This document shows, piece after piece, positions 1-21,072 of a stretch of DNA of 55,773 nucleotides. The DNA lies in NCBI RefSeq assembly GCF_016586165.1, contig NZ_BCPR01000029.1, positions 1 through 55,773 of the forward strand, in the 5' to 3' direction. Origin of the DNA: Dyella sp. EPa41 (GTDB lineage: Bacteria > Pseudomonadota > Gammaproteobacteria > Xanthomonadales > Rhodanobacteraceae). The position numbers and the translations under genes were made by a program. Position 1 is the stretch's first letter. Each line of letters starts with the position of its first letter. The notes below the pieces were generated by a model that was given only the letters and a program-made list of their open reading frames with translations, was not told the origin of the DNA and did no database searches.

Positions 1-932
1 GCCACCGCGTGCTGGCCGCGGCGATGAGCACACTGCATGACCGCGCCGTGCTCGATGGCAATGACATCCGCAATGCCTTGCCCGACAACGATCTCGCCGA
101 TCAGATCGAGCGGGTGCGTTTCACGCCGTTGCCGCAGAGCGTGGACGATATCTCCAAACTGTGGACGGCGTTCCAGACCAACTACCGCGTGTCGTCGGCC
201 TACGAGGCGACGGTGGTGTTGATCGACAGCCAGGCGCCGGCGCGGGCCAGCCTGCCGGTGCTCAAGCGCGGCGCGCAGGGCCGCGGTGTCATCGATGTGC
301 CGTCCACGGCACCCACCTTGTCCTCGCTCGCGCTGCCGCACCAGCAGTCCGCGGCGCGGCTGGGTGATGACCTGGTGCTGGGCGGCAGCCAGCTCACCGC
401 CGTTAACGCGGTGGTCCGCTTTGAAAGCCTGCGGCTGGACGCGCCGGTCGACGTGGCGCCGGTAACGGGCGATGCGGCCGGCACGCTGCGGGTGCATCTT
501 GCCGATCCGACGCAGGATGCCGACGCCCCCACGCGCTGGGCGCCAGGCATCTACACGCTTTCGCTGCTGGTGCAGTCGCCGGACCTGCCCGCGCTGATCA
601 GCAACGAGGTGCCGCTGGCCCTGGCGCCCGTCATCACGGTGAGCCCGTTGACGGCGGCCGTGGGCACGGTCGATCTCACGGTGACGTGCATGCCGCGGTT
701 GCGCGATGGGCAGCGCGTGTTTCTCGTGTTCGGCGACCAGTTGGTGGTGCCGGCGACCATCACCCAGCCGGGTGACCTGCATCAGCCCACCTCGCTTGCC
801 TTCAAGGTGACCGGCGTCGCCAAGGGCACGTACACCGTGCGCCTTCGCGTGGATGGCGCGGACAGCATCCCGGTCGACTTCAGCAGCGGCGTGCCGGCGT
901 TCGACGCCAACCAGCAGGTGGTGGTGTCATGA
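1..932 (+). CDS. DUF4255 (Pvc16-like) eCIS cap/sheath-terminator protein, 5' partial
   Basis: The reading frame is already open at base 3, and the first visible residues (HRVLAAAM) read as the interior of a DUF4255 domain, so the true start is upstream of the window. The stretch around residues 50–70 (YRVSSAYEATVVLI) is typical of the family. In PVC and Afp particles the DUF4255 protein (Pvc16/Afp16) ends the tube and sheath at the distal end. The C-terminal third, rich in V/T/G with regular strands, looks like an Ig/IPT-type beta domain, which many DUF4255 proteins carry. The stop overlaps the ATPase start by four bases (ATGA), implying translational coupling. Family assignment is by pattern recognition; the cap role is taken from PVC/Afp. 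Confidence 0.8.
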   Translation, partial: HRVLAAAMSTLHDRAVLDGNDIRNALPDNDLADQIERVRFTPLPQSVDDISKLWTAFQTNYRVSSAYEATVVLIDSQAPARASLPVLKRGAQGRGVIDVPSTAPTLSSLALPHQQSAARLGDDLVLGGSQLTAVNAVVRFESLRLDAPVDVAPVTGDAAGTLRVHLADPTQDADAPTRWAPGIYTLSLLVQSPDLPALISNEVPLALAPVITVSPLTAAVGTVDLTVTCMPRLRDGQRVFLVFGDQLVVPATITQPGDLHQPTSLAFKVTGVAKGTYTVRLRVDGADSIPVDFSSGVPAFDANQQVVVS

Positions 933-3112: not shown

Positions 3113-3417
3113 GCATCGTGCTGCGCATCGAACGGCTGGTGATCGACGAGGCGGTATTGGGCGGCGATCGGGCAAGCAGCGTGCGCATGGCGTTGGAGCG
3201 CGAACTTGCGCTGGCGCTGGCGCATCCCGACGCCATCCGTGCGTTGTCGGGTATCGGCGCAGTGATGTCCCTGCCTGCATGCGCAATGCCTGATGCGAAA
3301 CATTCGCGCGCCGGTCTTGGCGGGCGCATCGCTGCCGCGGTTGGGGAAGGGCTCGGCATGGGGCCTGTGGAACCGATGCGCGGTGGCGCCACACGGCCGA
3401 GAGGGCGTCATGGCTGA
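3109..3417 (+). CDS. small conserved eCIS-associated protein
   Basis: 102 residues starting at GTG 3109, which overlaps the TGA of the ATPase gene (GTGA). The N-terminus (SIVLRIERLVIDEAVL) resembles a short protein I recall as common directly in front of DUF4157 genes in proteobacterial eCIS loci. An amphipathic helix (residues ~20–40, RMALERELALALA) follows, and the C-terminus is Gly/Arg-rich and probably disordered. It overlaps the following DUF4157 gene by eight bases. Its position between the ATPase and the cargo candidates is compatible with an adaptor or cargo-chaperone role, but that is inference; no function is known to me. Confidence 0.65.
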   Translation: MSIVLRIERLVIDEAVLGGDRASSVRMALERELALALAHPDAIRALSGIGAVMSLPACAMPDAKHSRAGLGGRIAAAVGEGLGMGPVEPMRGGATRPRGRHG

Positions 3418-4879
3418 GCGCACGGCGAGCTTCGAGCGTGCCGCCCGGTCGCCCCTCGTGACGGCGGCCAGGATGCTGCAGCGCAGGTGCCGTTGCGGCA
3501 CCCACAGTCATGGCCATGCGGAATGCGGCGAGTGCGCAGGGAAGCGGGGTGGCCTGCAACGCAAGCTGGCCATCGGCGCGAGCCATGACCCGCTCGAGGC
3601 GGAGGCGGATCGCGTGGCCGACCAGGTGATGACAGGGGCGCCGCCGATGGGGATCGGGGCAGCCGGACCGCGAATCCAGCGTGCCGGCGGTGATGGCGGC
3701 GCCGGCCCGGATGCGCCCGGCAGCGTCGACGAGGCGCTTTCTTCCCCGGGCGCCCCCTTGCAGCCCGATTTGCGCCGCGACATGGAATCGCGTTTCAGGC
3801 ACGACTTCAGCGGCGTGCGCCTGCATACCGGGGGAGCGGCGGCGCGGTCGGCCCGCGACATCGATGCCAGTGCCTATACCGCAGGCAGCCACATCGTGCT
3901 GGGTTCGGGCGCGCCCTCATTGCAGACGCCGTCGGGCCGCCTGCTGTTGGCGCACGAGTTGACCCACGTTGTGCAGCAATCGGCGGCCAATGTCATCCGG
4001 CGTTGCATCAACCCCAAGAAGAACGACCCCATCTACGACTCGGTCGCCAACTCCATCCGGAACACGGCTGACTACAAGGCGTTGGATCCGCCGGACAAGG
4101 CCGAGGCCGACGGCATCATCACGGATGCGAAGAAGAAGGCGGGTTGCCTGTACTACATCGGCGAGCTGTTTGCGCTGTTCACCACCAAGGACAAGCCGCC
4201 CGCGCAGATTGCCAAGGAAACGCAGGCGGCTACCGTGGCGGCCGCGAGCACGGAAAAGGCGCGCGTCGCCAAGCCGGCGGAAGCCAAGAACCTCAACGTG
4301 GAAGAAAAGGCCTCGGGCGATCCCTTGCGGAAGTACGTGAAGATCAAGGGCAAGTTCGGTGGCGGAACGTATGAGGTCGACAACCGCGACCCGAAGAACA
4401 TCGTCGTCCGGGCCAAGGTATTCCTGAAGGCGACCGGGAGCGGCACGGCGGCCGACGTGGCCAACATCACCTCGATGGAGGACGCAATCGAAAAGGCCGC
4501 GTCGCGTCCCGGGTTCATCGTGGACATCAGCTTCGTCAATGCACCCGACGCCGACACGTTCACCGCCGAGGTGGATCCATCGAGGTGGGAGGTTGCGACG
4601 AACTGGTCCGGCGGCGACCCGACCGGATTCGCCCACGAGCTGCTGCACATGTTCGCCTATGAGCTCGATCGCTACGACTACATCCAGTCCCATGCGCGAA
4701 ACGCGTCGATGCTGGTGAAAGAGCGCGTCCATTGGTTCGCCATGCAGCTGAGCAAGCCGGCCGGGTTCGACAACCCCGCGTCCCTGATGGGTGAAGGACA
4801 GCACCCGCTGAACGACGACGCATGCCGCGTAGCGGGCCTGGATGTCGCCACCTGCGTTGCCGCGCGCCAAAAGCCATGA
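3410..4879 (+). CDS. DUF4157 protein with C-terminal HExxH metalloprotease-like domain (eCIS cargo candidate)
   Basis: 489 residues from ATG 3410, inside the end of the previous gene. Order of parts: Cys-rich head (CRCGTHSHGHAECGEC, residues ~25–40); the block EAEADRVADQVM; the DUF4157 core (RHDFSGVRLHTG ... AHELTH, with H182/E183/H186); a Lys/Ala-rich middle; and a C-terminal domain with a second zinc motif, AHELLH (H409/E410/H413), followed by LDRYDY and, further on, SLMGEG. That tail resembles zincin proteases of the HEFGHxxGLxDEY ... SIMxxG kind. DUF4157 is strongly enriched among eCIS-associated toxins. I therefore infer an injected or particle-linked protease; substrate unknown. The domain call is firm, the effector role is not. 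Confidence 0.8.
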   Translation: MAERTASFERAARSPLVTAARMLQRRCRCGTHSHGHAECGECAGKRGGLQRKLAIGASHDPLEAEADRVADQVMTGAPPMGIGAAGPRIQRAGGDGGAGPDAPGSVDEALSSPGAPLQPDLRRDMESRFRHDFSGVRLHTGGAAARSARDIDASAYTAGSHIVLGSGAPSLQTPSGRLLLAHELTHVVQQSAANVIRRCINPKKNDPIYDSVANSIRNTADYKALDPPDKAEADGIITDAKKKAGCLYYIGELFALFTTKDKPPAQIAKETQAATVAAASTEKARVAKPAEAKNLNVEEKASGDPLRKYVKIKGKFGGGTYEVDNRDPKNIVVRAKVFLKATGSGTAADVANITSMEDAIEKAASRPGFIVDISFVNAPDADTFTAEVDPSRWEVATNWSGGDPTGFAHELLHMFAYELDRYDYIQSHARNASMLVKERVHWFAMQLSKPAGFDNPASLMGEGQHPLNDDACRVAGLDVATCVAARQKP

Positions 4880-4908: not shown

Positions 4909-7026
4909 GTGCAAAAGCAGACCGCCCGCAACCTGATGCCTGTCGCGCCGCCGACCGCCGGCCACGTGCTGCGGCGCAAGTGCGCGTGCGGAAACCATGC
5001 GCCGGGCGGCGGCGAGTGCGAGCAGTGCAAGAAGCGGGTGCAGCGCAAGGGTGACGGCGCAGCGGCGCCCGCCGTGGCGCCGGGCATCGTGGGCGATGTG
5101 CTGGCGGGTGCCGGCCGGGCGCTCGACGGAACCACCCGTGGATGGATGGAGCAGCGCTTTGGCCACGACTTCAGTGGCGTGCGCATACACGCCGACGCGC
5201 AGGCCGCGCGCTCCGCCCAGGCAGTGGGCGCTCTTGCGTATACCGTAGGGCAGCACATCGTGTTCGGCGAAGGGCGATTTGCGCCGCAGTCGGGCGCGGG
5301 CCAACACCTTCTCGCCCATGAGCTGACCCATACCATCCAGCAACGCACGGCGCCTGCATCGCTGAGTCCACGGTTGAGCATCGGGGCAAGCGACGCCGCG
5401 GAAGAGGTCGAGGCCGATCGCGTGGCTGACCACGTGATGGCGGGCAGAAAGATCCCGGCCATTGGCGCAGGCGCCATGCCGTTGCTGCAGCGCCAGCCGC
5501 TTCCCGATGGTGGTGGCGACGCCGATACCAAGCCCGAGCCTGATTTCAGCCTGCCGCAGAAGCGCGGTGCGCAAGGACGGGCGGCATCGGTCGATGCCGG
5601 CAAGCGTGGCGAGGATGAGGTCAAGATCCGCATCATCCGTTACCTGTGCGCCTGCAGGGGGCGCAATGTCACCCGCACCAGTGCATCGGCCCGGCTCCAG
5701 CCCAATCCCGGCGTGACGCTGGAAATCTGCAACGGGCAAGTGACTGCCCGAGTGACGGGAGACATCGTGCCCAGCAGTGCGACAACTGGCACGGCGACGC
5801 TGGGCGTGGACGTCAACGTTGCTGGCAAGGCGAATGTCGGTGCCCATGCGCAGATTCAGAACACGGGTAATGAACCGCAGGTAGGCGGCGGAGGGGACTT
5901 GCGGGTCAAACTGCCAAACGGAGGGCAGATAGGGGCGAGTGGCGGTGTACTGAAAGGCACGCAGTCAGGCCGATTGGGTGGCCAGGGCGGTATTGGCTAT
6001 CAAACGCCTGATGGCACGACCTACGGTGGACAGGTCTCGGCTCAACAAGGAGGGCCTGTCGTCGTCACGGGCGGCGTCAATATACCTCTCGGCGGCCAGA
6101 ACGTCAGCAACAAGACCTGCCGCGAGTGTTATTGCCCGCTCTCGTATCAATGCTACGAAGACATCGTGCCGCGCGATTACGACACGCCGACCACATACGA
6201 CGTCGAGCAGCGCGGCCGGCTCCGCTATTACTTCAGCCTCGACAAGGCCGACGACACCACGGATCCGACGCTCAAGGGCGAATCGACCAGGACGCTGGAC
6301 GACGTGGCGAAACAGGTGGCGGCGGGGGCCAAGATTCGATCGATCACGGGCTATGCCTCGCCGGAGGACAACCGCGAGAAGCCCGAGCCGAACCAGAAGC
6401 TGTCCATGGACCGTGCGCGGCGCCTGCACGATCTGCTCGGTGCCCGCCTCGGCGCCGGCGCTTCGCTTCCTGCCCCCGCTGCCGGTGGCGAACTGCTGGG
6501 CCGTGCGCCCACGATCGCGCCAGGCAGCAGCCTGGCCCAGGCCATGCTCGACGCAGGCTTCGGTGATCCGGAAGACGTCACGCAATTCCTCGTTGGCAGC
6601 GATATCCCCAATCCCAAGCTGGCCGACCAGTTCCTGGGGTTGCTCGATCGTGTCACCGAGCCTGCCGACAGGCTGAAGCTCTTCGGCGTGAGCACTGATT
6701 CACCGGCGGCGCCAAAACTGCTGGCCGCCATCGAGCTGTTCCGCAAGAACCGCGGGCGAGGGCGCAGGCCGTGGGAGGGCATCTTCGGCTTCCTGCGCTA
6801 CGCGACGGTGGAGCTCAGCACCACCCGCAAGGAGCCGGGGACGGAACACCACCGCACGACGGGTTCATTGACGCCGATGGCCGAAGCCGCGTGCAAGCCC
6901 TACGCGAGCAAGGCGGAGGCGGCAATGAGCTTTGGCCCCGCCGAGCGCGAGCCCGACAAGGACGTCGACTGTCCGAGCGAGCCCGCCAACCAACCCCAGA
7001 CGGACAAACAATGCCATTACGACTGA
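4909..7026 (+). CDS. DUF4157 protein with Gly-rich repeat region and OmpA-like domain (eCIS cargo candidate)
   Basis: 705 residues from GTG 4909; no better start is visible. Parts in order: Cys-rich head (CACGNHAPGGGECEQC, residues ~24–40); DUF4157 core (GHDFSGVRIHAD ... AHELTH, H137/E138/H141); the EVEADRVADHVM block, here after the core; a Gly/Gln-rich stretch at residues ~277–405 with repeating GG-x-G pattern; a Cys pair region (CRECYCPLSYQC); and an OmpA-like peptidoglycan-associating segment at ~430–530 (ITGYASPEDN ... MDRARRLHDLL). The tail is unrecognised. The Gly-rich part has visibly more A/T third positions than its surroundings, suggesting module exchange. Likely an eCIS cargo or a particle–envelope tether; both are inferences from locus context. 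Confidence 0.78.
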   Translation: MQKQTARNLMPVAPPTAGHVLRRKCACGNHAPGGGECEQCKKRVQRKGDGAAAPAVAPGIVGDVLAGAGRALDGTTRGWMEQRFGHDFSGVRIHADAQAARSAQAVGALAYTVGQHIVFGEGRFAPQSGAGQHLLAHELTHTIQQRTAPASLSPRLSIGASDAAEEVEADRVADHVMAGRKIPAIGAGAMPLLQRQPLPDGGGDADTKPEPDFSLPQKRGAQGRAASVDAGKRGEDEVKIRIIRYLCACRGRNVTRTSASARLQPNPGVTLEICNGQVTARVTGDIVPSSATTGTATLGVDVNVAGKANVGAHAQIQNTGNEPQVGGGGDLRVKLPNGGQIGASGGVLKGTQSGRLGGQGGIGYQTPDGTTYGGQVSAQQGGPVVVTGGVNIPLGGQNVSNKTCRECYCPLSYQCYEDIVPRDYDTPTTYDVEQRGRLRYYFSLDKADDTTDPTLKGESTRTLDDVAKQVAAGAKIRSITGYASPEDNREKPEPNQKLSMDRARRLHDLLGARLGAGASLPAPAAGGELLGRAPTIAPGSSLAQAMLDAGFGDPEDVTQFLVGSDIPNPKLADQFLGLLDRVTEPADRLKLFGVSTDSPAAPKLLAAIELFRKNRGRGRRPWEGIFGFLRYATVELSTTRKEPGTEHHRTTGSLTPMAEAACKPYASKAEAAMSFGPAEREPDKDVDCPSEPANQPQTDKQCHYD

Positions 7027-7090: not shown

Positions 7091-8017
7091 ATGAGCGCGT
7101 ACGTGCATAACCGGCCATACCGGCCATGGGCGCCGCCGGCATCGGCCCGCGCTTCCGATAAGCGGGGGTCGTGCAGCTGCGGCAAGCATGCGGGCGCTTG
7201 CCCCCGCTGTCGCGGGGGCAAGGATGCGCCTGCCGCACGGTGGGCAGGACAGCCATGGCCCGGCGCTGCCCATGGGGCGCCCCCGCATGATTTCAGCCGG
7301 CTGCCCCTGTTCGGTGCGCGCGAAGCCCTCAACGGGCAGGGCGACGACGAGGGCGCGGAATCGGTCGATGGTCCGTCACCCGTCGGCTCCGGCAGCAACG
7401 CGCAACCCGCGCCGCCGCGTCCGCGCCCCACCGGCACCAAGGTGGATACGACCACCAGCTACACGCAGGCCGCGCTGCAGGCGGGGTATCTCTCGGGCAT
7501 GGGCATCGTGGCGCGGATGCAGGTGCTGCCCGACAGCACGACATGGGATGGCAACGAAGTCGTCGAGTCGCTGCAGCAGGTGTCTTCGACGTGCCCGGAT
7601 ACGCTCACGCGGCCGGGGCCGTGCAATGGTCATTCGCACTTCCCGATCGGTGCGAAGCTGCGCGCGCGTGGCGTGCGGCCGGAGCTGCCAGCGATGAGCA
7701 GTCGCTTCTACGACATCCACACGTCGCAATCGGAGGACGTGAGCTTCCTCCACGACGCCACGCGCAACCCCAAGGGCATCGATTCGTGCGAATCGGTGTG
7801 CCGGCAGGACTACTCCTACGACGGCGTGGTGATCGGTTCGCACAGCATCCGGCGCCAGTTCCGCAAGGGGAAGATCAACAACCACGACGTCACCATCATC
7901 GATGTGACCAAGACCGACCTCGCCCCCGCGGCTGCCGGCGGCAACCCGCAGCAAGGCAAACCCGGAGGCGGCAGTGGCAGCGGATCGCCGCCGTCGGGCA
8001 GCGGGGGAAAACCATGA
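7091..8017 (+). CDS. hypothetical eCIS-locus protein with Cys-rich head, no DUF4157
   Basis: 308 residues; ATG 7091 chosen because GGAG lies ~8 bases upstream and the Cys-rich head then sits near the N-terminus, as in the two preceding genes. The head CSCGKHAGACPRC is the same pattern, but no DUF4157 core follows. Instead there is a Pro/Gly linker (~residues 70–120) and a ~160-residue domain with four scattered cysteines (STCPDTL, GPCNGHSHF, DSCESVC) and several histidines, which I do not recognise, then a Gly/Ser tail. The gene overlaps the CIS tube-adaptor gene by ATGA. Position and shared head make it a third cargo candidate. Function unknown. Confidence 0.7.
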   Translation: MSAYVHNRPYRPWAPPASARASDKRGSCSCGKHAGACPRCRGGKDAPAARWAGQPWPGAAHGAPPHDFSRLPLFGAREALNGQGDDEGAESVDGPSPVGSGSNAQPAPPRPRPTGTKVDTTTSYTQAALQAGYLSGMGIVARMQVLPDSTTWDGNEVVESLQQVSSTCPDTLTRPGPCNGHSHFPIGAKLRARGVRPELPAMSSRFYDIHTSQSEDVSFLHDATRNPKGIDSCESVCRQDYSYDGVVIGSHSIRRQFRKGKINNHDVTIIDVTKTDLAPAAAGGNPQQGKPGGGSGSGSPPSGSGGKP

Positions 8018-8670: not shown

Positions 8671-8990
8671 TGGCCACGAATTTTCCTCCCGCCAGCCGCT
8701 ACGCGTTGACGCCGACCTGCACCTACGTGCGCGCGGATGGCACGCCCATCACCTACCTCCGGCGGCGCATGGTGCCGCCGCCGGAGAATTTCGCGCTGCT
8801 GCAATGGCACCGTGTCGTGCAGGGCGAGCGACTGGACAACGTCACGGCGAAGTATCTCGGCGATCCGGAACAGTTCTGGCGGTTGTGCGACGCCAATCGC
8901 GCGCTGCGCCCGGAGGAGCTCACCGAGACGATAGGGCGGCGCATCGCCATCACCTTGCCCGAAGGCATTCCGGGGGTGCCGCATGCTTAA
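8670..8990 (+). CDS. LysM-domain baseplate protein
   Basis: 106 residues from ATG 8670; a GTG three bases earlier would also work, but ATG sits on the preceding TGA (TGATG). After a ~40-residue front (CTYVRADGTPITYLRRRM), residues ~48–100 form a LysM-like fold (HRVVQGERLDNVTAKYLGDPEQFWRLCDAN ... ITLPEGIP, quoted in part). LysM-bearing proteins occur beside the hub in many contractile tails. Together with the preceding gene it equals a split Pvc7/Afp7. The last eight bases overlap the hub gene. Peptidoglycan contact is possible but in contractile tails these domains may be purely structural. Confidence 0.75.
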   Translation: MATNFPPASRYALTPTCTYVRADGTPITYLRRRMVPPPENFALLQWHRVVQGERLDNVTAKYLGDPEQFWRLCDANRALRPEELTETIGRRIAITLPEGIPGVPHA

Positions 8991-11336: not shown

Positions 11337-14122
11337 GCACCTTGGATGCTGCGCCTGGCCCGATCGGCATCAGCTGCCAGCTTCTGCCTGCCTGCAGCGA
11401 TGACATGCGGCGCGAAAAGGTGCGCCTGGAGGGCAGGCTCAATGGCATCGATTTCGTCGAAGTGGGAGACGACGGCATCACGTTGTGCGTTCACCTGTTC
11501 GGCGACGTGCCCCCGGACATCGCGCCAGCCAACGTGCGCATCAGCGGTGGCGATCGCATCACCGGCCTGCGCGCGCTGGGTGTCAGCGAGGAGAGCGAGC
11601 CGGACATGCACGACGACGTCTGCCTGCGCGTCGTGCTGGATCGCGAAGGCGATCATTCCGCGTATTGCCTGTGCCTGGTCGATGCGTCATCGGGCGACGA
11701 TCCTGCCGCCTGGCGGGCGTATCCCGGGTTCGATCCGCGGTATGCGTGCGCGCCGATCCGGTTTCGGCTCGATTGCGCCAAGGATGTCGACTGCGCGGCG
11801 ACCGCGCCATGCGTGAAGCCGGCGCCGGCCCTGCCGGACATCAACTATCTCGCCAAGGACTACACGAGCTTCCGGCAGCTGTTCTTCGACCGCCTGGCGA
11901 TCACCGTGCCCGGATGGCAGGAGCGCCACGTGCCGGATATCGGGGTGGCGCTGGTTGAAGTGATGGCTTATGTCGCCGACCACCTGAGCTACTACCAGGA
12001 TGCGGTGGCCACCGAAGCCTATCTCGCCACGGCCAGGCGTCGAATCTCCGTGCGGCGGCATGCAAGGCTGGTGGACTACCGCATGCACGAAGGCTGCAAC
12101 GCACGCGCGTTCGTCACGTTGGCCCTCGCCGCGGGCGAGCAGGCGCTGCCGCTCGACCAGCTGCTGTTGCTGGTTCCCCCGCCGGGACAGACGCCGGTGA
12201 CGCCGGGCGCGATCGATGCAAAGGCGCTCGACATGGCGCGCACGCAGGGCGCGCTGATCTTCGAGCCCATGATGCCGGATGGCGTGGACACCATCACTGT
12301 GGTCGCCGCGCAGAGCGCCATCCGCATCTATACCTGGGGCAACGAGCGGTGCTGCCTGCCACGCGGCAGCACGCAGGCCGTACTGCTGGATGAGCCACTG
12401 CCGGTGCCGCCTCCAACAGAGACCGCGCCGCCCAATGGCGACGGTGGCAGCACGCCTGCTCCGCAGCTGAAGTCGGCTGCCGTGGCTGCGCCGCAGCGTG
12501 CGTTGAAGCTGAAGCCGGGCGACTTCCTGATCTTCGAGGAAGTGCTGGGCGTGTCCACGGGCAACCCCGCGGATGCGGATCCGTCGCATCGTCACGCGGT
12601 CCGGCTCACGGATGTGCAGGAACTGGTCGACCCGCTGGACGGCAGCCTGCTGCTGCGGGTGAGCTGGGATGCGTGCGATGCGCTGCCGTTCGACCTGTGC
12701 CTGTCGGTGCGCCTGTCGTCGCCGGACTGCCGCTGGATCGATGACGTGAGCCTCGCGCGGGGAAACGTGCTGCTGGTCGATCATGGGGATCATCCGCCGG
12801 GGCAGTGCCAGTGCGATGCGCTATGCGTGCCGCCGGAGGCGATCGACGATGCCGACTATCCCGGTCTCTCCAGCGCCATGGCGTCCGTGCCGGATGCCTG
12901 CATGCGTTGCGGGTTGCTGAAGGAGGAGTGCTGGCTGGTGCCGGGCCAGGCGCAGTACGCATGCTGCGTGTGCGATGGCGCCGTGCAGGACGTGACCCGT
13001 CCCGCGGGAGACGCCGGTCATGCGTTGACGGGTTCGCCACTCACATGGGCCGAACCGCTGCCGGCCGCTTCCGGCGTGCCGGTGTGCCAGCTGTTGTCGC
13101 GCGATCCACGGCTGGCGCGACCGCAACTCGACGTCTACGGCGGCCGCCTGGATGAGGTATTGGTCAACGGCACGCCCCATGCAGGCTGCCAGTGGACCGC
13201 GCAGTACGACCTGCTGGAAAGCGGCCCGAACGATCGTCATTTCGTGGTGGAAGTGGATGATGACGGCGTTGCCCATCTGCGTTTCGGTGACGGTGTCCTC
13301 GGCCAGCAGCCGCAGGCGGGCGACTTCTTCCGTGCCCTGCCGCGCATCGGCAACGGCAGCGCGGGCAACGTGGGCTGCGACAGCATCGTGTGGCTGGCCG
13401 CAAGGGCCGGCGTGCCGCCGGACGGCATCGTGCCGCGCAATCCGATGGCGGCCACCGGTGGTACCGATGCGGAGAGCCTGGCCGAGGTGAAGCGGTATGC
13501 GCCCGGCGCATTTCGCGCGAATGCGTTGCGTGCGATCACCGCGGACGACTACGCCATGTTCGCCGCCCGCGAAGCGGCCTTGCAGGGCGCGTCGTGCCGG
13601 CTCGCATGGACCGGCAGCTGGTATGAGGCCGACGTCGTGGTCGATCCGCGCGGTGCGGAGAGCCTCGCCCCGGCGTTGGCCGCCAAGGTGAAGCACGACT
13701 TGTGGCCTTATCGGCGCATGGGTCACGACCTGGCCGTGCTGGCCGCGTGTTACGTGCCGTTGCTCATCGAGCTGCGCGTCTGCGTGCTGCCGGACTTCCT
13801 TGTGGCGCATGTCAGATCCGGTTTGGTGGATCGTTTCACCGCCGGCTTGCGCAGCGATGGCCAACCGGGCTTCTTCCATCCGGATCGCCTGCTGCTCGGC
13901 TCGCCGGTCCATGCCAGCGCGGTGATCGCCGAGGCCCAGGCCGTGGCCGGCGTGGCGCATGTCGAGCTGCTTACGCTTGCCCGCGCCGAGGGTGCCGTGC
14001 CGGGTGACGTGCCCGCGGATGGCGTGCTGCATCTGGCATCGGTGGAGATCGCGCAGGTCGACAGCAGCCCCGATCATCCCGATCGCGGCTCCATCACGTT
14101 CGTCATGGGAGGTGGCCGATGA
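11333..14122 (+). CDS. large baseplate assembly protein, gpJ-like (Pvc11-like)
   Basis: 929 residues. Key family segments: DINYLAKDYTSFRQLFFDRL (residues ~165–185), then VPDIGVALVEVMAYVADHLSYYQDAVATEAYL (quoted in parts), which recur in all eCIS 'putative baseplate assembly proteins'. The C-terminal half has the gpJ domain (FGDGVLGQQPQAGDFFRA, then GTDAESLAEVKRYAPGAFRA and ITADDYAMFA). A Cys-rich insert at residues ~480–550 (CQCDALC, CMRCG, CCVCDG) looks like a metal-binding ribbon. It would form the wedge ring around the hub. The gene is coupled by ATGA at both ends. Confidence 0.88.
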   Translation: MSTLDAAPGPIGISCQLLPACSDDMRREKVRLEGRLNGIDFVEVGDDGITLCVHLFGDVPPDIAPANVRISGGDRITGLRALGVSEESEPDMHDDVCLRVVLDREGDHSAYCLCLVDASSGDDPAAWRAYPGFDPRYACAPIRFRLDCAKDVDCAATAPCVKPAPALPDINYLAKDYTSFRQLFFDRLAITVPGWQERHVPDIGVALVEVMAYVADHLSYYQDAVATEAYLATARRRISVRRHARLVDYRMHEGCNARAFVTLALAAGEQALPLDQLLLLVPPPGQTPVTPGAIDAKALDMARTQGALIFEPMMPDGVDTITVVAAQSAIRIYTWGNERCCLPRGSTQAVLLDEPLPVPPPTETAPPNGDGGSTPAPQLKSAAVAAPQRALKLKPGDFLIFEEVLGVSTGNPADADPSHRHAVRLTDVQELVDPLDGSLLLRVSWDACDALPFDLCLSVRLSSPDCRWIDDVSLARGNVLLVDHGDHPPGQCQCDALCVPPEAIDDADYPGLSSAMASVPDACMRCGLLKEECWLVPGQAQYACCVCDGAVQDVTRPAGDAGHALTGSPLTWAEPLPAASGVPVCQLLSRDPRLARPQLDVYGGRLDEVLVNGTPHAGCQWTAQYDLLESGPNDRHFVVEVDDDGVAHLRFGDGVLGQQPQAGDFFRALPRIGNGSAGNVGCDSIVWLAARAGVPPDGIVPRNPMAATGGTDAESLAEVKRYAPGAFRANALRAITADDYAMFAAREAALQGASCRLAWTGSWYEADVVVDPRGAESLAPALAAKVKHDLWPYRRMGHDLAVLAACYVPLLIELRVCVLPDFLVAHVRSGLVDRFTAGLRSDGQPGFFHPDRLLLGSPVHASAVIAEAQAVAGVAHVELLTLARAEGAVPGDVPADGVLHLASVEIAQVDSSPDHPDRGSITFVMGGGR

Positions 14123-17100
14123 GCTGCTGCAGCGCCTGTGGCCAGCACGCCTGCGCCTGCGGATGCGGCGCCAGCGAGCGTACGCCGCTTCCTCTCGCCA
14201 ACCGGCCGGGGTTGTCCAGCCTCGCGTATCGCGTGGGCACCTACGCGGAATTCTTCGCCACCATGCAGATGGACCTGAGCTCGTCCGCGCTGCCGGCCCT
14301 GACCGGGCTGCGCACGCGTGAACTCGACGACCCATCCATGGCGCTGGTCGATGCATGGGCCATCGGCGCCGACGTGTTGAGTTTCTACCAGGAGCGCATC
14401 GCCAACGAAGGCTACCTGCGCACGGCGACCGAGCGCTGCTCGGTGCTGCAGCTGGGGCGGTTGGTCGACTATCGTCTTCGTCCCGGCGTCGCCGCGAGCG
14501 TCTACCTGGCCTACACGATCGACGACAACTCGCCGCCGGTGACGATACCGGCGGGCGCCAAGGCCCAATCGGTGCCCGCGCCGGGCGAACAGATGCAGAC
14601 CTTCGAGACGGCCGAGCCGCTGGATGCGCGCCACGAATGGAACACCTTGCGTCCGCGGCAGACGCAACCGCAGAACATCACGCTGGATACGATCGCATCG
14701 CTGCAGGAGGTGTGGCTGGCGGGTGGCAGCACGCAGCTCAGGCACGGCGACAGGCTGCTGTTCCAGTTCGGCGAACTGGCGACCGGCACCAGCGTGTTGC
14801 GCAGGGTGGAGTCGGTGGATGTCCAGCAGACCGATCCCGCCACCGGCGCCATGCTGCAGCCTGCCGATCAGAGCAGCCGCGTCCGCCTGCAAGCGCTGGG
14901 CGCGGTGACGGTGGCGATTGTGGCGGCAGCCAATCGTGCGGTTGCTGCCCTGGCGTCGGGCGATGCGCGCTGGTTCAACGCATTGCTGGGCGTGCGCCAG
15001 CAATTGCTGCTGGGCGTCGACGACGGCGGTTCCGCCAAGATGTTTTCGACGGTGTTCATGCGCTACCTGGAAGGTTGGCAAAGCGGGCCGGCGCCAGTGC
15101 AGGACTTCATGAAGGCCGTCGACGAGGCCTTTGGCGGCCCGCCCGCGGCACCGCCGCCGGCGGCGGGCTTTGGCGCCTTGTTCGACGCGTTGATCCTGCC
15201 GCGTACGCTGCAACCCGCGAACAGCTTGCGGCTCCAGCGCGGGATCGCCACCGTGCTCGCGCCGGCGAGCGACGCGCGACCGCAGCTGCTGCTCAACTTT
15301 GCCACGCCGCTGCTCGATACCTTCTACCGCGCATGGACGGCCATTGCGCACGGCAACCCCTCGCCGGACCTGCTGGGGGTGTTCGCACTGCGCGTGAAAG
15401 CGCCGCTGTTCGGCTACAACGCGCCGGCGCCCATGACGGTCAACCAGAAATGGGATGGCTCGCAATGGGTGTCGACCATGGTGCCTGGCTCGCTGGACAC
15501 CAGCAACGAAGTGGCCGGAACCGTCTGGCTCGATAACGCCTATGACGATGTGGAGGACGGCAGCTACGCGGTGATATGGCCGCCAGGGAACCATCCCGTC
15601 ACGGTGCGCCTGTCGCATGCCACCACCGCGCCGCACTCGATGTACACGATGAGCGGCAAGAGCACGCGCCTGGATATCGATCCGAACCAGGGTGATCACA
15701 GCTGGAGCATCGGCGGCGAATCGGACGTGCGTGGCACGCAGGTGTACGCACAGAGCGAGCCACTGACCCTGGCTGCCACCCATATCCTCGACCAGGCGGG
15801 CAATGCCACGGTGAGCAGCGCGGGTGTGGCACAGGACGGTGCCACGCGCATGACGCTTGATCAGCCGGTCGATGGGCTCAAGCCAGGGCGCTGGGTGGTG
15901 GTGCAGGGGCAACGGGCCGACGTACCCGGCACCGATGCCGTGAACGCCTCGGAGGCGGTCATGCTGCTGGCTGTCGAACAGGCGGCATCGAGCCTGCCCG
16001 GGGACACCATCCACAGCACGCTGGTCTTCGCCGGCAAGGGGCTGGCGTACGCGTACGTTCGCGGCAGCGTGTCGGTCTATGCCAACGTCGTGCGCGCCAC
16101 CCACGGCGAGACGCGCAACGAGGTACTGGGAAACGGCAATGGCGCGACGGCCATGCCCACGTACGCGCTGAAGCAGTCGCCGCTCACCTACGTTTCCGCG
16201 CCCACGGTGGATGGCGTGCAGAGCACGCTGGTGGTGTCCGTCAACGGCATGCAGTGGCATGAGGCGCGCAACCTCGCGTTTGTCGGCGTGACGAGCCGCA
16301 GCTACGCGACGTCGATCGACGACAGCGGCAAGGTGAGCGTGCTGTTCGGCAATGGCGTGCATGGCGCCCGCGTACCTACCGGCATCGAGAACATCACCGC
16401 GGTCTATCGGCAAGGCATTGGCACGCCCGGCAATGTGCAGGCAGGGCAGATCAGCCTCGCGGCCACGCGCCCACTCGGCGTCAAGCAGGTGGTCAACCCC
16501 TTGCGCGCCTCGGGCGGCGCCGACCCCGAAACGCGCGATCAGGCGCGCGTCAACGTGCCGCTGGCCGTGCTCGCGCTGGATCGTCTCGTGTCCATCACCG
16601 ACTACGCCGACTTCTCGCGCACCTATGGCGGCGTGGGCAAGGCTTGCGCGATCAAGCTGGGTTCACAGGTACTGGTGACCATCGCCGGCGCCGGCGATGC
16701 GCCCATCGACGACACCTCCGACCTCTATGGCAACCTGCTGCAGTCGCTGCAGCAGTTCGGCGATCCATCGCTGCCGGTCACGCTGATGGTGCGCCAGCTC
16801 GTTGCGCTGACCTTGAGCGCCAGGGTCGGCCTGGCGCCGGATGTCACATGGGAAACCGTGGAGCCGGTGATACGCGCCGCGTTGCTGGACCGTTACGGCT
16901 TCGAGAACGCGGGGCTGGCGAAGCCGGTCTACCTGAGCGGTGTCGTGTCCTGCATCCAGGCCGTGCGCGGCGTGGCCTGGGTCGACGTGGATGCCTTCGG
17001 CAGCCTCGACGAGGCCGCGCTGCTGCTCGGCTTTGGCGTCGGAAGCAACGGTGGCGGCGACGATGGCGCGGTGCTGGCGCGGGGCCCAGCACAGGCGGCG

Positions 17101-17235
17101 GACCCCGCCACACCGCAGCGGATCACCGTGCTTGATGCGCGCCTGGACAGCCAGGGCAACCCACTCCCGGCGCAGATCGCGTATTTCCTCCCGGCGGTTC
17201 CGGACACCCTCTTGCTGCAGCAGGCCACGCCATGA
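14119..17235 (+). CDS. second large baseplate assembly protein, gpJ-like, with Cys-rich N-terminus
   Basis: 1038 residues. A head with eight cysteines in the first ~20 residues (CCSACGQHACACGCG) precedes a typical baseplate start (LAYRVGTYAEFFATM ... LVDAWAIGADVLSFYQERIANEGYL). The centre (residues ~250–420) is less conserved, and the C-terminus again shows the gpJ pattern: SVLFGNGVHGARVPTG, then ADPETRDQARVNVPL and SITDYADFSRTYGGVGKA. Paralogous to the preceding 929-aa protein in its conserved parts. Two such proteins in tandem are usual for eCIS of this kind and probably correspond to Pvc11/Pvc12-type wedge parts. The assignment to a single PVC number is uncertain. Confidence 0.85.
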   Translation: MSCCSACGQHACACGCGASERTPLPLANRPGLSSLAYRVGTYAEFFATMQMDLSSSALPALTGLRTRELDDPSMALVDAWAIGADVLSFYQERIANEGYLRTATERCSVLQLGRLVDYRLRPGVAASVYLAYTIDDNSPPVTIPAGAKAQSVPAPGEQMQTFETAEPLDARHEWNTLRPRQTQPQNITLDTIASLQEVWLAGGSTQLRHGDRLLFQFGELATGTSVLRRVESVDVQQTDPATGAMLQPADQSSRVRLQALGAVTVAIVAAANRAVAALASGDARWFNALLGVRQQLLLGVDDGGSAKMFSTVFMRYLEGWQSGPAPVQDFMKAVDEAFGGPPAAPPPAAGFGALFDALILPRTLQPANSLRLQRGIATVLAPASDARPQLLLNFATPLLDTFYRAWTAIAHGNPSPDLLGVFALRVKAPLFGYNAPAPMTVNQKWDGSQWVSTMVPGSLDTSNEVAGTVWLDNAYDDVEDGSYAVIWPPGNHPVTVRLSHATTAPHSMYTMSGKSTRLDIDPNQGDHSWSIGGESDVRGTQVYAQSEPLTLAATHILDQAGNATVSSAGVAQDGATRMTLDQPVDGLKPGRWVVVQGQRADVPGTDAVNASEAVMLLAVEQAASSLPGDTIHSTLVFAGKGLAYAYVRGSVSVYANVVRATHGETRNEVLGNGNGATAMPTYALKQSPLTYVSAPTVDGVQSTLVVSVNGMQWHEARNLAFVGVTSRSYATSIDDSGKVSVLFGNGVHGARVPTGIENITAVYRQGIGTPGNVQAGQISLAATRPLGVKQVVNPLRASGGADPETRDQARVNVPLAVLALDRLVSITDYADFSRTYGGVGKACAIKLGSQVLVTIAGAGDAPIDDTSDLYGNLLQSLQQFGDPSLPVTLMVRQLVALTLSARVGLAPDVTWETVEPVIRAALLDRYGFENAGLAKPVYLSGVVSCIQAVRGVAWVDVDAFGSLDEAALLLGFGVGSNGGGDDGAVLARGPAQAADPATPQRITVLDARLDSQGNPLPAQIAYFLPAVPDTLLLQQATP

Positions 17236-19481
17236 ACAGCCAGCCGGATCGTCTCTACGCCCTGATGCCGGTGGTCTACCGCATGCGGGACGCGGACCAG
17301 GGTTATCCGTTGCGTGACTTCCTGCGCGTGCTCTCGGCGCAGGCGGACGTGCTGGAGCAGGACATCACGCGGCTCTATGACAACTGGTTCATCGAGACCT
17401 GCGACGACTGGGTCGTGCCGTACATCGGCGACCTGCTCGGGTACACGCTGTTGCCCGAAGCGGCCACCTTGTCCGCCGATGGCTGCGCGTCTGCCGGGCT
17501 GGGTCGCGTGCTTGCGCCGCGTGCCGACGTGGCCAACCTGATCGACGCGCGTCGCCGCAAGGGCACGCTGTCGTTGCTGGAAGATCTCGCGCGCGATGCG
17601 GCGGACTGGCCGGCCCGGGCGGTGGAGTTCTATCCGTTGCTGGGCTGGACGCAGCATCTCGATCACCAGCACGCCTGGCGGGGTGGTGCGGCCGACCTTC
17701 GACAACCCGGTCGGCTCGAATGCCTGGCGTGGGAGGACGGTGCATTCGATCGCCTGGCGCACAGCGTGGACATCCGCCGCATCGACAGCGCGCATCGCCG
17801 CGGACGTTTCGCCATCCCTAACGTGGGCCTGTTCGTGTTTCGCCTGCGCAGCTATCCCGTGACGTGCACGCCGGCTTATTGCGTGGAAGAGCAAGGCGCG
17901 CAGTGCTACAGCTTCAGCGTGCTCGGCCAGGACACGCCGTTGTTCCAGCGACCGGTCGCCGAAGCCGCGCCCACGCATATCGCACAGGAAGAAAACCTCC
18001 CGGTACCGTTGCGGCGTTATCGCTTCGCCGAGCGTGGCGCCGCCGCGGATTACGCGACGGTTTCGGCCAGCCTCTACGGCGAAGGCAAGAGCGTGCAGAT
18101 CTTTGCGCCCGACTGGCCGGCGAAAGGCCAGGGTTTGCCGGTGCCCATCGAGCTGCTGATGCCGGCCGACCTCGACGACTGGAAATACCAGGTGCCCCGC
18201 GGGCGCGTGGCCATCGATCCGGAGCGCGGCCGCCTGTTGTTTCCCGCGGGGCAGCGCCCCAAGCGTGGCGTGTGGGTGAACTACCAGTACGGCTTTGCGG
18301 CGGATATCGGCGGCGGCGAATACGCGCGGGTGACGCCGGAGCTGGAGAACGCGACGCGCTACACCGTGCACGCGGCCCGGCCCGACAGCGATCCGGCCAA
18401 GACCGCCTTGCCCGATCGTCATTTCGCCAGCATCGCGGCGGCATTGGAGGCATGGGCGAAGGCGAAAGCGGCCGCGCCCGCCTTGCGTGCGCTGATCATC
18501 GAACTCGCGGAAAGCGGCGTCTACGAGGGCGGCATCGATGTGCAGCTGGATCCCGGCGAAGCCATCCAGATCCGTGCGGCCGATCGCACGCGCCCGGTGC
18601 TTCGCCTGCTCGATGTGCGCGCCAGCCAGCCCGATGCGCTGTCCGTGGGTGGTGGACCGGGCAGCCGTTTCGTCATGGACGGCCTGCTCGTCTCGGGACG
18701 CGGCATCGAGGTGCACGGACCGCAGGATGACGGTGATGCCACGGCGTTGCCCGCCGAGGACCTGTGCGAACTGGTGATACGGCACTGCACGCTGGTGCCG
18801 GGATGGTCGCTGCAATGCGATTGCGATCCCAGGCGCCCGGGCGAGCCGAGCATCACCCTCGACGGCACGCGGGCGTCATTGCGCGTGGAATGCAGCATCC
18901 TCGGAGGCATCAGCGTGGTATCGCCGGCCAGGCGTGGCGAGCCGCCATCGATCACGCTGCGCGACAGCGTGCTGGACGCTACCGGACCGCAACGGCTGGC
19001 CATCGCGTCGCCGGACGAGGCGGTGGCCTATGCCAATGCCAGCTTCGTCCGCTGCACGGTGGTCGGCCAAGTGCAGGTGCATGGCGTGCCACTGGCCGAG
19101 AATTCGATATTCGCCAGCCCGCTGCGCGTGTTGCGCCGACAGGCGGGATGCGTGCGCTTCTGTTTCGTGCCGTCGGGATCGCGCACGCCCCAGCGCTTCC
19201 ACTGCCAGCCGGATCTTGCCGTGGCCGCCGTGGACAGTGCCGATGCGGCGCAGGTACGGCTGCGTGTCGTGCCGTTGTTCCGCAGTCGTCGCTACGGATC
19301 GCCGCACTACATGAGGTTGGCCGATGCCTGTTGCGAAGAGATTCGCGGCGGCGCCTCGGACGAGTCTTCGATGGGCGTGTACCACGACCTGTACGAGCCG
19401 CAGCGGCAGGCGAATCTCGCGTTGCGTCTCGAAGCATACGTGCCGGCGGGAGCTGCTCCCGGCATGTTCTTCGCGAGTTAG
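17232..19481 (+). CDS. gpI-like tail/baseplate protein with beta-helix-like C-terminal region
   Basis: 749 residues. The N-terminal ~230 residues are phage tail protein I-like (YALMPVVYRMRDADQGYPLRDFL ... DWVVPYIGDLLGY, in parts), the wedge partner of gpJ proteins. Residues ~400–700 show repeated short strands and turns with recurring I/V and small residues (EAIQIRAADRTRPVLRL, SRFVMDGLLVSGRGIEV, SITLDGTRASLRVECS), like a right-handed parallel beta-helix, a fold common in receptor-binding or glycan-cleaving tail proteins. That would make it a fusion of a wedge part and a surface-binding part; the beta-helix is inferred from pattern only. Ends in TAG overlapped by the RBS of the next gene. Confidence 0.75.
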   Translation: MNSQPDRLYALMPVVYRMRDADQGYPLRDFLRVLSAQADVLEQDITRLYDNWFIETCDDWVVPYIGDLLGYTLLPEAATLSADGCASAGLGRVLAPRADVANLIDARRRKGTLSLLEDLARDAADWPARAVEFYPLLGWTQHLDHQHAWRGGAADLRQPGRLECLAWEDGAFDRLAHSVDIRRIDSAHRRGRFAIPNVGLFVFRLRSYPVTCTPAYCVEEQGAQCYSFSVLGQDTPLFQRPVAEAAPTHIAQEENLPVPLRRYRFAERGAAADYATVSASLYGEGKSVQIFAPDWPAKGQGLPVPIELLMPADLDDWKYQVPRGRVAIDPERGRLLFPAGQRPKRGVWVNYQYGFAADIGGGEYARVTPELENATRYTVHAARPDSDPAKTALPDRHFASIAAALEAWAKAKAAAPALRALIIELAESGVYEGGIDVQLDPGEAIQIRAADRTRPVLRLLDVRASQPDALSVGGGPGSRFVMDGLLVSGRGIEVHGPQDDGDATALPAEDLCELVIRHCTLVPGWSLQCDCDPRRPGEPSITLDGTRASLRVECSILGGISVVSPARRGEPPSITLRDSVLDATGPQRLAIASPDEAVAYANASFVRCTVVGQVQVHGVPLAENSIFASPLRVLRRQAGCVRFCFVPSGSRTPQRFHCQPDLAVAAVDSADAAQVRLRVVPLFRSRRYGSPHYMRLADACCEEIRGGASDESSMGVYHDLYEPQRQANLALRLEAYVPAGAAPGMFFAS

Positions 19482-19491
19482 GAGATCGATC

Positions 19492-21072
19492 ATGAAAGGC
19501 GACTTTGCGCGTGTCACCTTCGACTCGACGCTGCACTACAGCCAGGTCTTCCAGCAGCAGGGGCGCGTCACGCTGGAGGCCGACTGGAACGAGCAGGTCA
19601 GCATCCAGCTGAACCTCCTGCGCGCGCTGGCCAGTGACCTGGTGGGTCCGTGCTGGGCCGCCGGCAGCGGCTTCCTGTTCACGGCCGCGCCCAGGTTGCC
19701 CGATGGGTCGCTGACGCCCGGGCATTTCTATGTCGACGGCATCCTCTGCATCAATGAAAGCGCCTGCACGTTCGGGACGCAGCCCAACCTGCCGACGCCC
19801 GACACGATCACCGGCAACGACGGTTCGTCGGGCCAGCCGGCGAGCTTTGCGTTGTGGCTCGACGTATGGGAGCGGCACCTGTGCGCGGTGGAAGCACCGG
19901 CCATCGCCGATACGGCGCTCAACGGCATCGACACGGCGTCACGTGCGCAGGTGATCTGGCAGGCGCGCATGCTTGACCTCGATCCCGAGCGATCGACGGC
20001 TTCGCTGGCCAATGTGCGCGCGGCGCTGGGATTGCGCAAAGACCTGGATGCGGCGACGCTCAAGCAGGACCTGGCCAATCTCGATGCCCTGGCGAATGCG
20101 TTGAACGGGCAGGGAGCGGCAAACACCACGCGCTGCGACGCGCTGCGCCAGCTGGTCGGCGTGCGCGCCACCTACGCGTGGCCGCGGATGCGCGCGCAGC
20201 TGGGCCCCGTCGACACCGACAGCGACCCGTGCGTGATCGCGGCCGATGCGCGTTACCGGGGTTGCGAAAACCAGCTGTACCGCGTCGAGATCCATCGCGG
20301 TGGACTGGCCAGCACGGATGCGGCGCCGACCACCACCAGCTTCAAGTGGTCGCGCGAGAACGGATCGGTGGTGTTTCCTGCAGCGAGCAACGTGATCGGC
20401 CAGGCGGACGACGGCAGCGCTATCATGACCGTCACGCTGGCAAGCCTGGGGCGCGACCAGCGATTGGGCCTGGCGACGGGCGACTGGGTCGAATTGGTGG
20501 ATGACGACTACACCCTGGCGCAGCTGGCTTATCCGCTGCTGCAGGTGAAGGCGGTCGACGTCATGCGACGCACCGTGCAACTGGCCTTGGCGGCGGGAGC
20601 GACGCCCTATCAGCTGAGCAACGACGCGCGAAAGCATCCTTTGCTGCGCCGCTGGGATCAGCATGACGGCGTGGCGGTGGGCGGCGACGTGGTGCTGGTG
20701 GAAGGTGAACCGGTCACGCTCGAGAATGGCATCCAGGTGCGCTTCGAGCCGGGAGGCCTGTATGCCACCGGTGACTACTGGCTGATTCCCGCGCGCGTTT
20801 CGGGGCAGGGCATGATCGAATGGCCGCAGGTGGCCGGCACGCCCGCACCGCTGCCATCGCGTGGCATGCATCATGCAGCGGTGCTGGGCACGTACACGGC
20901 GGCAGCGGGCTATGTGGAATGCTGCTGCCGCTTCGACTCGCTCTGCACGCTGCTTCGCAACAGCGCGACCCGCAAGCCGCTGGATACCGCGACGGGCGCC
21001 GTGGCGAAGAACGCCGCCGTCGCCAAGGCGACACCGGCGGTAAAGAAGACCACCCGGAAGAAGCACGGCTGA
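19492..21072 (+). CDS. DUF6519 domain protein, last gene of the eCIS operon
   Basis: 526 residues from ATG 19492, with AGGAG overlapping the previous stop. The opening (KGDFARVTFDSTLHYSQVFQQQGRVTLEADWNEQ, in parts) is the characteristic start of DUF6519 proteins, which sit at the end of eCIS baseplate operons. Later sections (TTSFKWSRENGSVVFP, WVELVDDDYTL) are beta-rich. The C-terminal 30 residues are Lys/Ala-rich (AKNAAVAKATPAVKKTTRKKHG) and basic. It may be a fibre, a baseplate-attached plug or an assembly factor; the family has no established function that I know of. Confidence 0.75.
   Translation: MKGDFARVTFDSTLHYSQVFQQQGRVTLEADWNEQVSIQLNLLRALASDLVGPCWAAGSGFLFTAAPRLPDGSLTPGHFYVDGILCINESACTFGTQPNLPTPDTITGNDGSSGQPASFALWLDVWERHLCAVEAPAIADTALNGIDTASRAQVIWQARMLDLDPERSTASLANVRAALGLRKDLDAATLKQDLANLDALANALNGQGAANTTRCDALRQLVGVRATYAWPRMRAQLGPVDTDSDPCVIAADARYRGCENQLYRVEIHRGGLASTDAAPTTTSFKWSRENGSVVFPAASNVIGQADDGSAIMTVTLASLGRDQRLGLATGDWVELVDDDYTLAQLAYPLLQVKAVDVMRRTVQLALAAGATPYQLSNDARKHPLLRRWDQHDGVAVGGDVVLVEGEPVTLENGIQVRFEPGGLYATGDYWLIPARVSGQGMIEWPQVAGTPAPLPSRGMHHAAVLGTYTAAAGYVECCCRFDSLCTLLRNSATRKPLDTATGAVAKNAAVAKATPAVKKTTRKKHG

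What the first reader, a model, noticed from the sequence alone, without database searches (positions are those of the whole stretch)
1..21072. 3' part of an eCIS locus with cargo block inserted between ATPase and baseplate genes
DUF4255, AAA+ ATPase, DUF4157 proteins, tube adaptor, LysM, hub, spike, PAAR, gp25, gpJ x2, gpI-like and DUF6519 follow each other on one strand with ATGA-type overlaps. Compared with PVC/Afp order, the DUF4255 and ATPase genes come first and the cargo candidates sit before the baseplate genes. Sheath and tube genes must be upstream. The composition fits a contractile particle, not a phage or T6SS.
Basis: partly seen in the sequence, partly recalled or inferred. Interest (0 to 1): 0.75.

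Follow-up and report, generated by a model that had tools for sequence, protein, structure and literature searches.

The report
Bacterial injection machine with swappable cargo
The stretch holds most of the genes for a phage-tail-like protein syringe of a soil-type bacterium, and its likely cargo genes sit in a fixed, exchangeable slot in the middle of the operon, which makes it possible to ask how such syringes choose what they load.

Summary
Window 1-21,072 is the larger, 3' part of a contractile injection system (CIS) operon. Sheath, first tube and gp26 genes lie in the same genome on contig C125, whose end is about 170 bp from the window if the order follows relative G295. No phage head or integrase was met, and a third genome of the genus shows the site without the ~27 kb block. 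The cargo block is a conserved location: between ATPase and second-tube (tube initiator) genes, 35 of 47 non-redundant loci carry 1.4-7.4 kb with HExxH-like motifs, 11 carry 257-415 bp without. Cargo N-blocks match in 92% of pairs, C-blocks in 6%. Precedent limits novelty: Streptomyces davawensis has a DUF4157 effector in the same position, and the nearest solved sheath is that of the cytoplasmic Streptomyces coelicolor CIS. Extracellular release, loading and toxicity are untested. New variant of a known kind.

The parts
3..932 (+). DUF4255 / Pvc16_N tube terminator; 309 aa present, about 104 aa lie beyond the contig start (length of the relative in L136)
   Evidence: PF14065 3.3e-23, profile 97-179; first 48 aa readable at the left end of C125; 413 aa in L136
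929..3112 (+). AAA+ ATPase (Pvc15 position), WHD + one AAA domain matched
   Evidence: PF00004 4.2e-28, PF22977 8.4e-19
   Evidence: GTGA overlap with ATPase; alignment A2; 30 of 233 family genomes, all CIS-positive; no NCBIfam match, only DUF630 at 0.04 in Pfam, PDB best 0.017
3410..4879 (+). cargo candidate 1: Cys leader + eCIS_core + C-terminus with a second HExxH near residue 409
   Evidence: PF13699 4.4e-29; leader 3470-3559; HExxH positions; C-terminus without Pfam match
4909..7026 (+). cargo candidate 2: Cys leader + eCIS_core + C-terminus with a weak OmpA-like match
   Evidence: PF13699 1.3e-31; OmpA 0.0086, below cut-off; leader 4963-5052
7091..8017 (+). cargo candidate 3, 308 aa, Cys leader but no eCIS_core match
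   Evidence: no Pfam family; leader 7154-7234; homologues in L037, L059, L070, L137
8014..8670 (+). second tube protein (tube initiator / Pvc5 position)
   Evidence: CIS_tube 8.8e-5, below cut-off; 45 of 233 family genomes
8670..8990 (+). LysM-position small protein (label not confirmed by Pfam)
   Evidence: phrog_46 baseplate hub 5.7e-5
8983..10119 (+). baseplate hub (weak support)
   Evidence: phrog_52 0.0026; position
10116..10622 (+). spike, VgrG/gpV OB domain
   Evidence: PF04717 1e-22
10634..10957 (+). PAAR-like spike tip
   Evidence: DUF4280 0.00047, PAAR 0.0054, both below cut-off
10965..11336 (+). gp25 baseplate wedge
   Evidence: PF04965 3.2e-16
11333..14122 (+). baseplate J-like 1
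   Evidence: TIGR02243 3.8e-88
14119..17235 (+). baseplate J-like 2
   Evidence: TIGR02243 3.1e-63; PF04865 3.3e-5
17232..19481 (+). gpI-position protein, 749 aa, no profile match
   Evidence: conserved in order in relatives
19492..21072 (+). DUF6519, named eBAP5 and proposed as a tail-fibre marker in PMC12923769; the listed ORF start 19324 is probably too early
   Evidence: PF20129 6.9e-212 from residue 57 of that ORF; start by codon score; passages

Best explanation
This is the 3' part of a contractile injection system operon, close to the Streptomyces type by sheath, in a probable Dyella species. Transcription is probably switched on by sigma-54 RNA polymerase and an activator encoded just upstream; the operon then encodes sheath, tube, terminator, ATPase, small protein, cargo, tube initiator, hub, spike and baseplate in that order. 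Slot proteins are loaded into the tube by means of a shared N-terminus (Cys leader, in most cases followed by DUF4157) that docks at the tube initiator/hub with help of the ATPase and perhaps the small slot protein, and are released on contraction; their C-termini are exchangeable modules. Shown here by sequence: gene content, order, fixed slot, constant N-terminus and variable C-terminus, leader and small protein confined to CIS-positive genomes of the family, promoter sequence. Inferred from published systems: lumen loading and tube-initiator docking. Not shown: extracellular release, target, toxicity.
For: Gene content and order. Slot: of 47 non-redundant loci 35 have 1.4-7.4 kb and at least one HExxH-like motif, 11 have 257-415 bp and one 856 bp, these twelve without the motif. 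49 non-redundant leader-bearing cargos: N-blocks match in 1082 of 1176 pairs, C-blocks in 71 of 1176, 23 C-terminal groups. Leader: 56 matches at E<=1e-4 in 30 genomes, all 30 among the 45 of 233 with the second tube gene; 50 of 56 lie 0-9 kb upstream of that gene on its strand. Sigma-54 site 339-365 bp upstream of the sheath in 15 of 16 loci that show the activator gene; own rpoN present. Published, passages or sections seen: DUF4157 proteins Cgo1/Cgo2 fill the AlgoCIS tube (PMC8894135); Tme co-elutes with tip, spike and tube initiator (PMC11126660); Sle2 co-elutes with tube initiator SlpT2 (PMC13277306).
Against: No experiment. The nearest solved sheath by sequence belongs to a cytoplasmic CIS, so release from the cell may not occur. 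At phylum level the leader profile found only the own genome of 398 while 19 of 398 have Pvc16_N (only up to 20 first-look candidates per genome were scored), so the leader in this form is not general to CISs. 12 of the 35 filled slots have no strict leader match (L047, L050, L055, L073, L075, L076, L079, L086, L087, L089, L091, L129); L050 and L129 have one, and L073, L076, L079 and L086 show looser Cys motifs by eye. Several slot genes have neither leader nor core match (papain-like, CHAP, TPR membrane protein, an unmatched 274-aa protein). One activator-bearing locus lacks the promoter (L130).
Confidence: 0.82

Rival explanations
1. A defective prophage or R-type tailocin rather than an injection system with its own cargo.
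For: The first J-like protein has distant matches in 15 of 50,697 phage records.
Against: The 8 of 15 rows listed cover 20-23% of the query at 22.9-25.4% identity; DUF4255 and DUF4157 are named CIS core domains (PMC8213781); no head, terminase or integrase family among the genes scanned; no tRNA in the window; the block sits between AsnC and a TonB-receptor region.
Confidence: 0.02
2. A cell-internal (cytoplasmic) CIS like that of Streptomyces coelicolor, firing inside the producer under stress, not an extracellular weapon.
For: Best solved sheath 8bky/8bl4 = S. coelicolor CIS over residues 1-526, E 2.6e-80; cell-wall-type domains among slot proteins of relatives (CHAP with PG_binding_1, PG_binding_1; weaker M15 and OmpA) could act on the producer's own wall. 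Immunity genes were not looked for.
Against: DUF6519 is proposed as a tail-fibre marker (PMC12923769), which would suggest binding to a target. Dyella is, from general knowledge, a single-celled diderm, unlike Streptomyces.
Confidence: 0.35
3. The slot proteins are structural (tape-measure or lumen-filling) rather than effectors.
For: The slot has the position of tme, called tape-measure related (PMC11126660); I recognised no Afp14-type tape-measure gene here (not searched by profile).
Against: Slots of 257-415 bp exist in 11 of 47 loci, so the machine seems able to do without them; C-termini fall in 23 groups, unlike a structural part.
Confidence: 0.1
4. The Cys leader is only a structural part of the DUF4157 region, with no loading role of its own.
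For: In most cargos the leader comes shortly before eCIS_core; a DUF4157 protein binds the tube initiator in Streptomyces (PMC13277306).
Against: Two cargo families carry the leader without an HExxH of the core: window 7091-8017 with L037, L059, L137 homologues, and L069/L136. But the DFSRLP-like stretch after the leader may be a core remnant, and the leader of the L070 homologue is reduced.
Confidence: 0.4

Closest known systems
Streptomyces davawensis CIS with effector Tme (PMC11126660; passages)
   Same: [quoted passage not shown] interacts with tube initiator and spike; group said to be conserved across phyla
   Different: One very large tape-measure-like effector there; here none to several medium-sized cargos with unrelated C-termini, a Cys leader, a sigma-54 activator and the small slot protein, none of which the passages seen mention
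Streptomyces coelicolor / S. lividans CIS, subtype IId (PMC10066040 passages; PMC13277306 section 5)
   Same: Closest solved sheath (8bky, 8bl4); DUF4157 protein Sle2 co-elutes with tube initiator SlpT2
   Different: Effectors just upstream of the structural genes (Sle1/Sle2) or transmembrane proteins, two with ricin-like domains (Sco4256-4258); Gram-positive host
AlgoCIS with Cgo1/Cgo2 (PMC8894135 passages)
   Same: Two DUF4157 cargos with similar N-termini and different C-termini fill the tube lumen
   Different: N-terminus described as disordered, no Cys motif mentioned in the passages seen; by locus tags the cargos lie near one end of the cluster
PVC / Afp, lineage Ia (PMC11495950 passages)
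   Same: Pvc15-type ATPase, Pvc16-type terminator, gp25, J-like proteins, spike
   Different: Payloads downstream of the operon with 50-70-aa disordered signal peptides, and sheath proteins Pvc2, 3 and 4 there; one sheath hit and a mid-operon slot here

Membership tests
CIS/eCIS (core domains of PMC8213781: gp19 tube, sheath, gp25, Baseplate_J, spike/PAAR, DUF4255, AAA, DUF4157) | core domains in one locus | tested here: met
   PAAR only below cut-off; sheath and tube on C125, contiguous with the rest in G295
CIS/eCIS | no phage head, terminase, integrase; no TssJLM beside it | tested here: met
   Pfam scans of the locus, 7 frames of C125 and 20 frames downstream; a LysE-like flank gene was read by eye only; TssJLM elsewhere in the genome not searched
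CIS/eCIS | particle released from the cell | not testable with these tools
   needs electron microscopy of supernatant
Lineage I (PVC/Afp) | pvc1-16 order with payloads downstream and several sheath genes | tested here: not met
   one PF04984 match in the own genome; slot in mid-operon
Subtype IId (Streptomyces CIS) | sheath in the IId clade | tested here: inconclusive
   best PDB match 8bky 2.6e-80; no tree built against dbeCIS references
tme group (S. davawensis) | DUF4157 effector gene immediately upstream of tube initiator/baseplate genes | tested here: met
   DUF4157 genes 3410-7026 and the third slot gene lead straight into 8014
tme group (S. davawensis) | very long ORF with tape-measure homology and TM helices | tested here: not met
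   cargos of 489, 705 and 308 aa; no tape-measure family in Pfam; TM helices not tested
sigma-54-dependent operon | -24/-12 element, activator gene, rpoN in genome | tested here: met
   transcription itself not testable here

The most novel reading that the evidence does not exclude
The Cys leader (LQRKCxCGxHxxxGGxCxxC) is a separable, metal-binding loading tag for this CIS clade, distinct both from the disordered signal peptides of PVC/Afp and from DUF4157, and the small slot protein, found in 29 of the 30 leader-positive family genomes and in 1 of the other 15 CIS-positive ones, is its dedicated receptor between ATPase and tube initiator. The leader travels with genes that lie outside the slot: two orphans elsewhere in two genomes of the Rhodanobacter-type genus (L122, L123) and one at the 3' end of a locus whose slot is empty (G359; L126, L127).
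Probability: 0.25. Interest if true: 0.68.

Novelty: new variant of a known kind. Interest (0 to 1): 0.5.

Why it matters
How CISs outside the PVC/Afp lineage choose cargo is open, and the role of DUF4157 is called elusive or still to be studied in the papers seen. A clade with a fixed cargo slot, natural empty-slot loci, a shared leader present with and without DUF4157, and a predicted switchable promoter makes loading directly testable by gene removals in environmental bacteria. It also qualifies the stated trend that CIS toxins lie at the 3' end of operons (PMC8213781; PMC11297309).

Tried and rejected
Prophage/tailocin: rejected. Mobile element: no tRNA in the window and no integrase among scanned genes; the site without the block in G338 leaves gain or loss undecided. 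The J-like protein also matches 35 of 72,556 plasmid records, all under 60% identity; not followed. Rfam: nothing at gathering scores in the window. Leader as a general CIS mark: not borne out at phylum level. PDB relatives of the small protein and the leader: best E 0.017, and none.

Literature: papers holding 'extracellular contractile injection' with 'sigma54' number 3, with 'RpoN' 0; of the 3, by title two are on a gene transfer agent and on Vibrio small RNAs (listing only), and the third is a review whose passages treat the two subjects apart. The Geller main text has no sigma-54 or RpoN. For a Cys leader the listings (30 of 59, 15 of 4,957, 10 of 34 shown) gave no title to that effect; the Danov passages on 'cysteine' and 'zinc' concern other things. 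Supplements were not readable, subscription papers are missing, and the dbeCIS paper is recalled only.

The own genome's third eCIS_core match (C6:67564) is a stand-alone gene without leader, near a transposase-like gene (read by eye). One artefact row: L046_7194 is a wrong-frame match; it was under the length limit and not in the 49. L083 (Massilia H-1) has frame breaks and was left out of A2; it was not mended.

Full report
What is there. The window is contig C29 of a 165-contig genome and starts inside a DUF4255/Pvc16_N gene. From 3 to 21,072 sixteen genes follow on the + strand: DUF4255, AAA+ ATPase, a small protein, three cargo candidates, second tube protein, LysM-position protein, hub, spike, PAAR-like tip, gp25, two J-like baseplate proteins, a gpI-position protein and DUF6519. 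Seven of 15 junctions are 4-base overlaps. What follows (a DUF2946-like gene by eye, then a TonB receptor at 21,635) is outside: from about 21,100 on it aligns to genomes of the genus that lack the system at this place.

The missing 5' part. A sheath search of the own genome gives one hit, on the 6.9 kb contig C125. Read towards the window, C125 carries an AsnC-type regulator, a sigma-54 activator (4.1e-60), a short protein, sheath, tube, gp26 and a 240-aa protein without family, and ends 48 codons into DUF4255. In relative G295 the two contig ends align to one stretch with 167 bases between them; G295 proteins are 83-100% identical to these, apart from the 240-aa protein (61%). Order and adjacency are thus inferred from a relative, not assembled.

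Who. Named relatives with the closest J-like protein are Dyella, Luteibacter and Rhodanobacter. A genome of the window's genus, G336, has a contig of the same length (198,983) as a Dyella japonica record, so the window is most likely a Dyella (inference). The genus called Rhodanobacter below is inferred in the same way.

The slot. 35 have 1.4-7.4 kb with at least one HExxH-like motif in a forward frame (frames, not checked genes), 11 have 257-415 bp, one has 856 bp; none of these twelve has the motif. Filled slots occur in named Dyella, Luteibacter, Rhodanobacter, Massilia, Duganella, Nitrosomonas, Methylobacter and Desulfonema and in a bin called Methanosaeta, which may be contamination. It departs from the stated trend that CIS toxins lie at the 3' end (PMC8213781, PMC11297309; passages), but has a precedent in S. 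davawensis tme (passages).

The small protein. At 3109-3417, overlapping the ATPase by GTGA, lies a ~100-aa protein (MxIxLHIERLVLD...). It follows the ATPase in 21 of 26 loci by pattern; in the other 5 I read a similar frame by eye. Twenty were aligned (L083 dropped for frame breaks). Five loci, four of them cargo-less, have a divergent form that matches by profile comparison (probability 87, E 3.9e-6). In 233 family genomes the profile finds 30, all within the 45 that have the second tube gene; at most 22 first-look candidates per genome were scored, so misses are possible. Within the 45, it and the strong leader co-occur in 29, with one genome having only the one and one only the other; the genomes are related, so the Fisher value overstates this. 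No family in NCBIfam, Pfam (cut-off) or PDB names it.

The leader. All three window cargos carry a Cys motif near the N-terminus. A six-frame scan of 36 loci gave 40 open-frame matches, 39 of them cargo N-termini in or near the loci, one in a J-like protein. I selected them by the cysteines, so the cysteines are not evidence; the flanking L and R (90% or more) and K, not selected for, are conserved. A profile of these 39 finds 56 matches at E<=1e-4 in 30 of 233 family genomes, each with the second tube gene; 50 lie 0-9 kb upstream of that gene on its strand. Of the other six, two are in a slot split by a contig end (L136), two are orphan genes with a DUF4157-like stretch by eye (L122, L123), one is at the 3' end of a locus with an empty slot (G359), one is 157 kb away and was not followed. 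Between E 1e-4 and 0.01 five genomes without the tube gene match, where about two are expected by chance. Across the phylum only the own genome of 398 matches at E<=1e-4, while 19 have Pvc16_N (up to 20 candidates per genome scored): the leader in this form looks like a mark of this clade, not of CISs in general. Of the 35 filled slots 12 lack a strict leader match.

Exchangeable ends. In 49 non-redundant leader-bearing cargos the first 190 residues match in 1082 of 1176 pairs and the rest in 71 of 1176, with 23 groups. The largest group, 14, includes window cargo 2 with its weak OmpA-like match. Of 14 C-terminal pieces scanned, 2 had a family over its cut-off (thioredoxin, PG_binding_1), 5 only weaker matches (among them M35 just under its cut-off, M15, OmpA), 7 none at 0.05; leaderless slot genes gave papain-like C1 and CHAP with PG_binding_1. 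Function and target are unknown.

Control of expression. Of 29 loci with a visible sheath start, 16 show the activator gene; 15 of these have TGGCAYG-N4-TTGC at 339-365 bp upstream of the sheath (not L130). Of the 13 without a visible activator one has it (L136, where the stretch is too short to show the activator), and six have TGGCAT-N5-TTGC at 367-481 bp; in L055 an exact site lies further out, beyond the 700 bp scanned. In C125 the exact pattern occurs once, with 0.04 expected (7 of 200 shuffles have it). The genome has rpoN. The frame I called p153 overlaps this site, so its true start is probably downstream (inference).

Island. In G338 the parts that align to the two flanks of G295 are 154 bp apart, AsnC and the TonB receptor about 700 bp apart, and no second tube gene was found; in G295 about 27 kb lie between the same points.

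Verdict. An intact-looking CIS with the nearest solved sheath in the Streptomyces coelicolor system. Identity is near certain; the loading model rests on published relatives; mode of action is open between extracellular and cytoplasmic.

Noticed in passing
L002 (G000:C125) 4067-4081 minus; 339-365 bp upstream of the sheath in 14 relatives with the activator: Sigma-54 -24/-12 element with a dedicated activator gene that has no receiver-domain match; cargo-less loci often have a slightly different site.
   Followed up: yes
L126/L127 (G359:C11): Slot of 287 bp empty, but a leader-bearing gene lies at the 3' end of the same locus: cargo outside the slot, leader kept.
   Followed up: partly
L122 and L123 (G202:C1, G257:C1): Orphan genes with leader, DUF4157-like stretch and a second HExxH (by eye and pattern), on a contig other than the injection locus, near sigma-factor-like genes.
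   Followed up: partly
L060:5927-6679; a similar frame in the slot of L046: CHAP + PG_binding_1 protein as last slot gene before the tube initiator; could be cargo or a lysis enzyme for release.
   Followed up: no
L069:5139-5936 and similar frames in L061, L066, L068: Membrane protein with weak TPR matches and no leader, recurring at the 3' end of Rhodanobacter slots.
   Followed up: no
L082 (Nocardioides), 20102-20293; L075 (Massilia), 18929-21202: DUF4157-like matches downstream of DUF6519; in L082 the slot itself is empty.
   Followed up: no
window 24110-25510 minus: Beta-CASP metallo-beta-lactamase-fold protein (RNase-like) downstream of the TonB receptor.
   Followed up: no
window 44073-48218: DNA polymerase III alpha-type protein; PHP domain only at residue 361, so the listed start is probably too early.
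   Followed up: no
window 51735-55771: HlyD-type adaptor and AcrB-type transporter running off the window's end.
   Followed up: no
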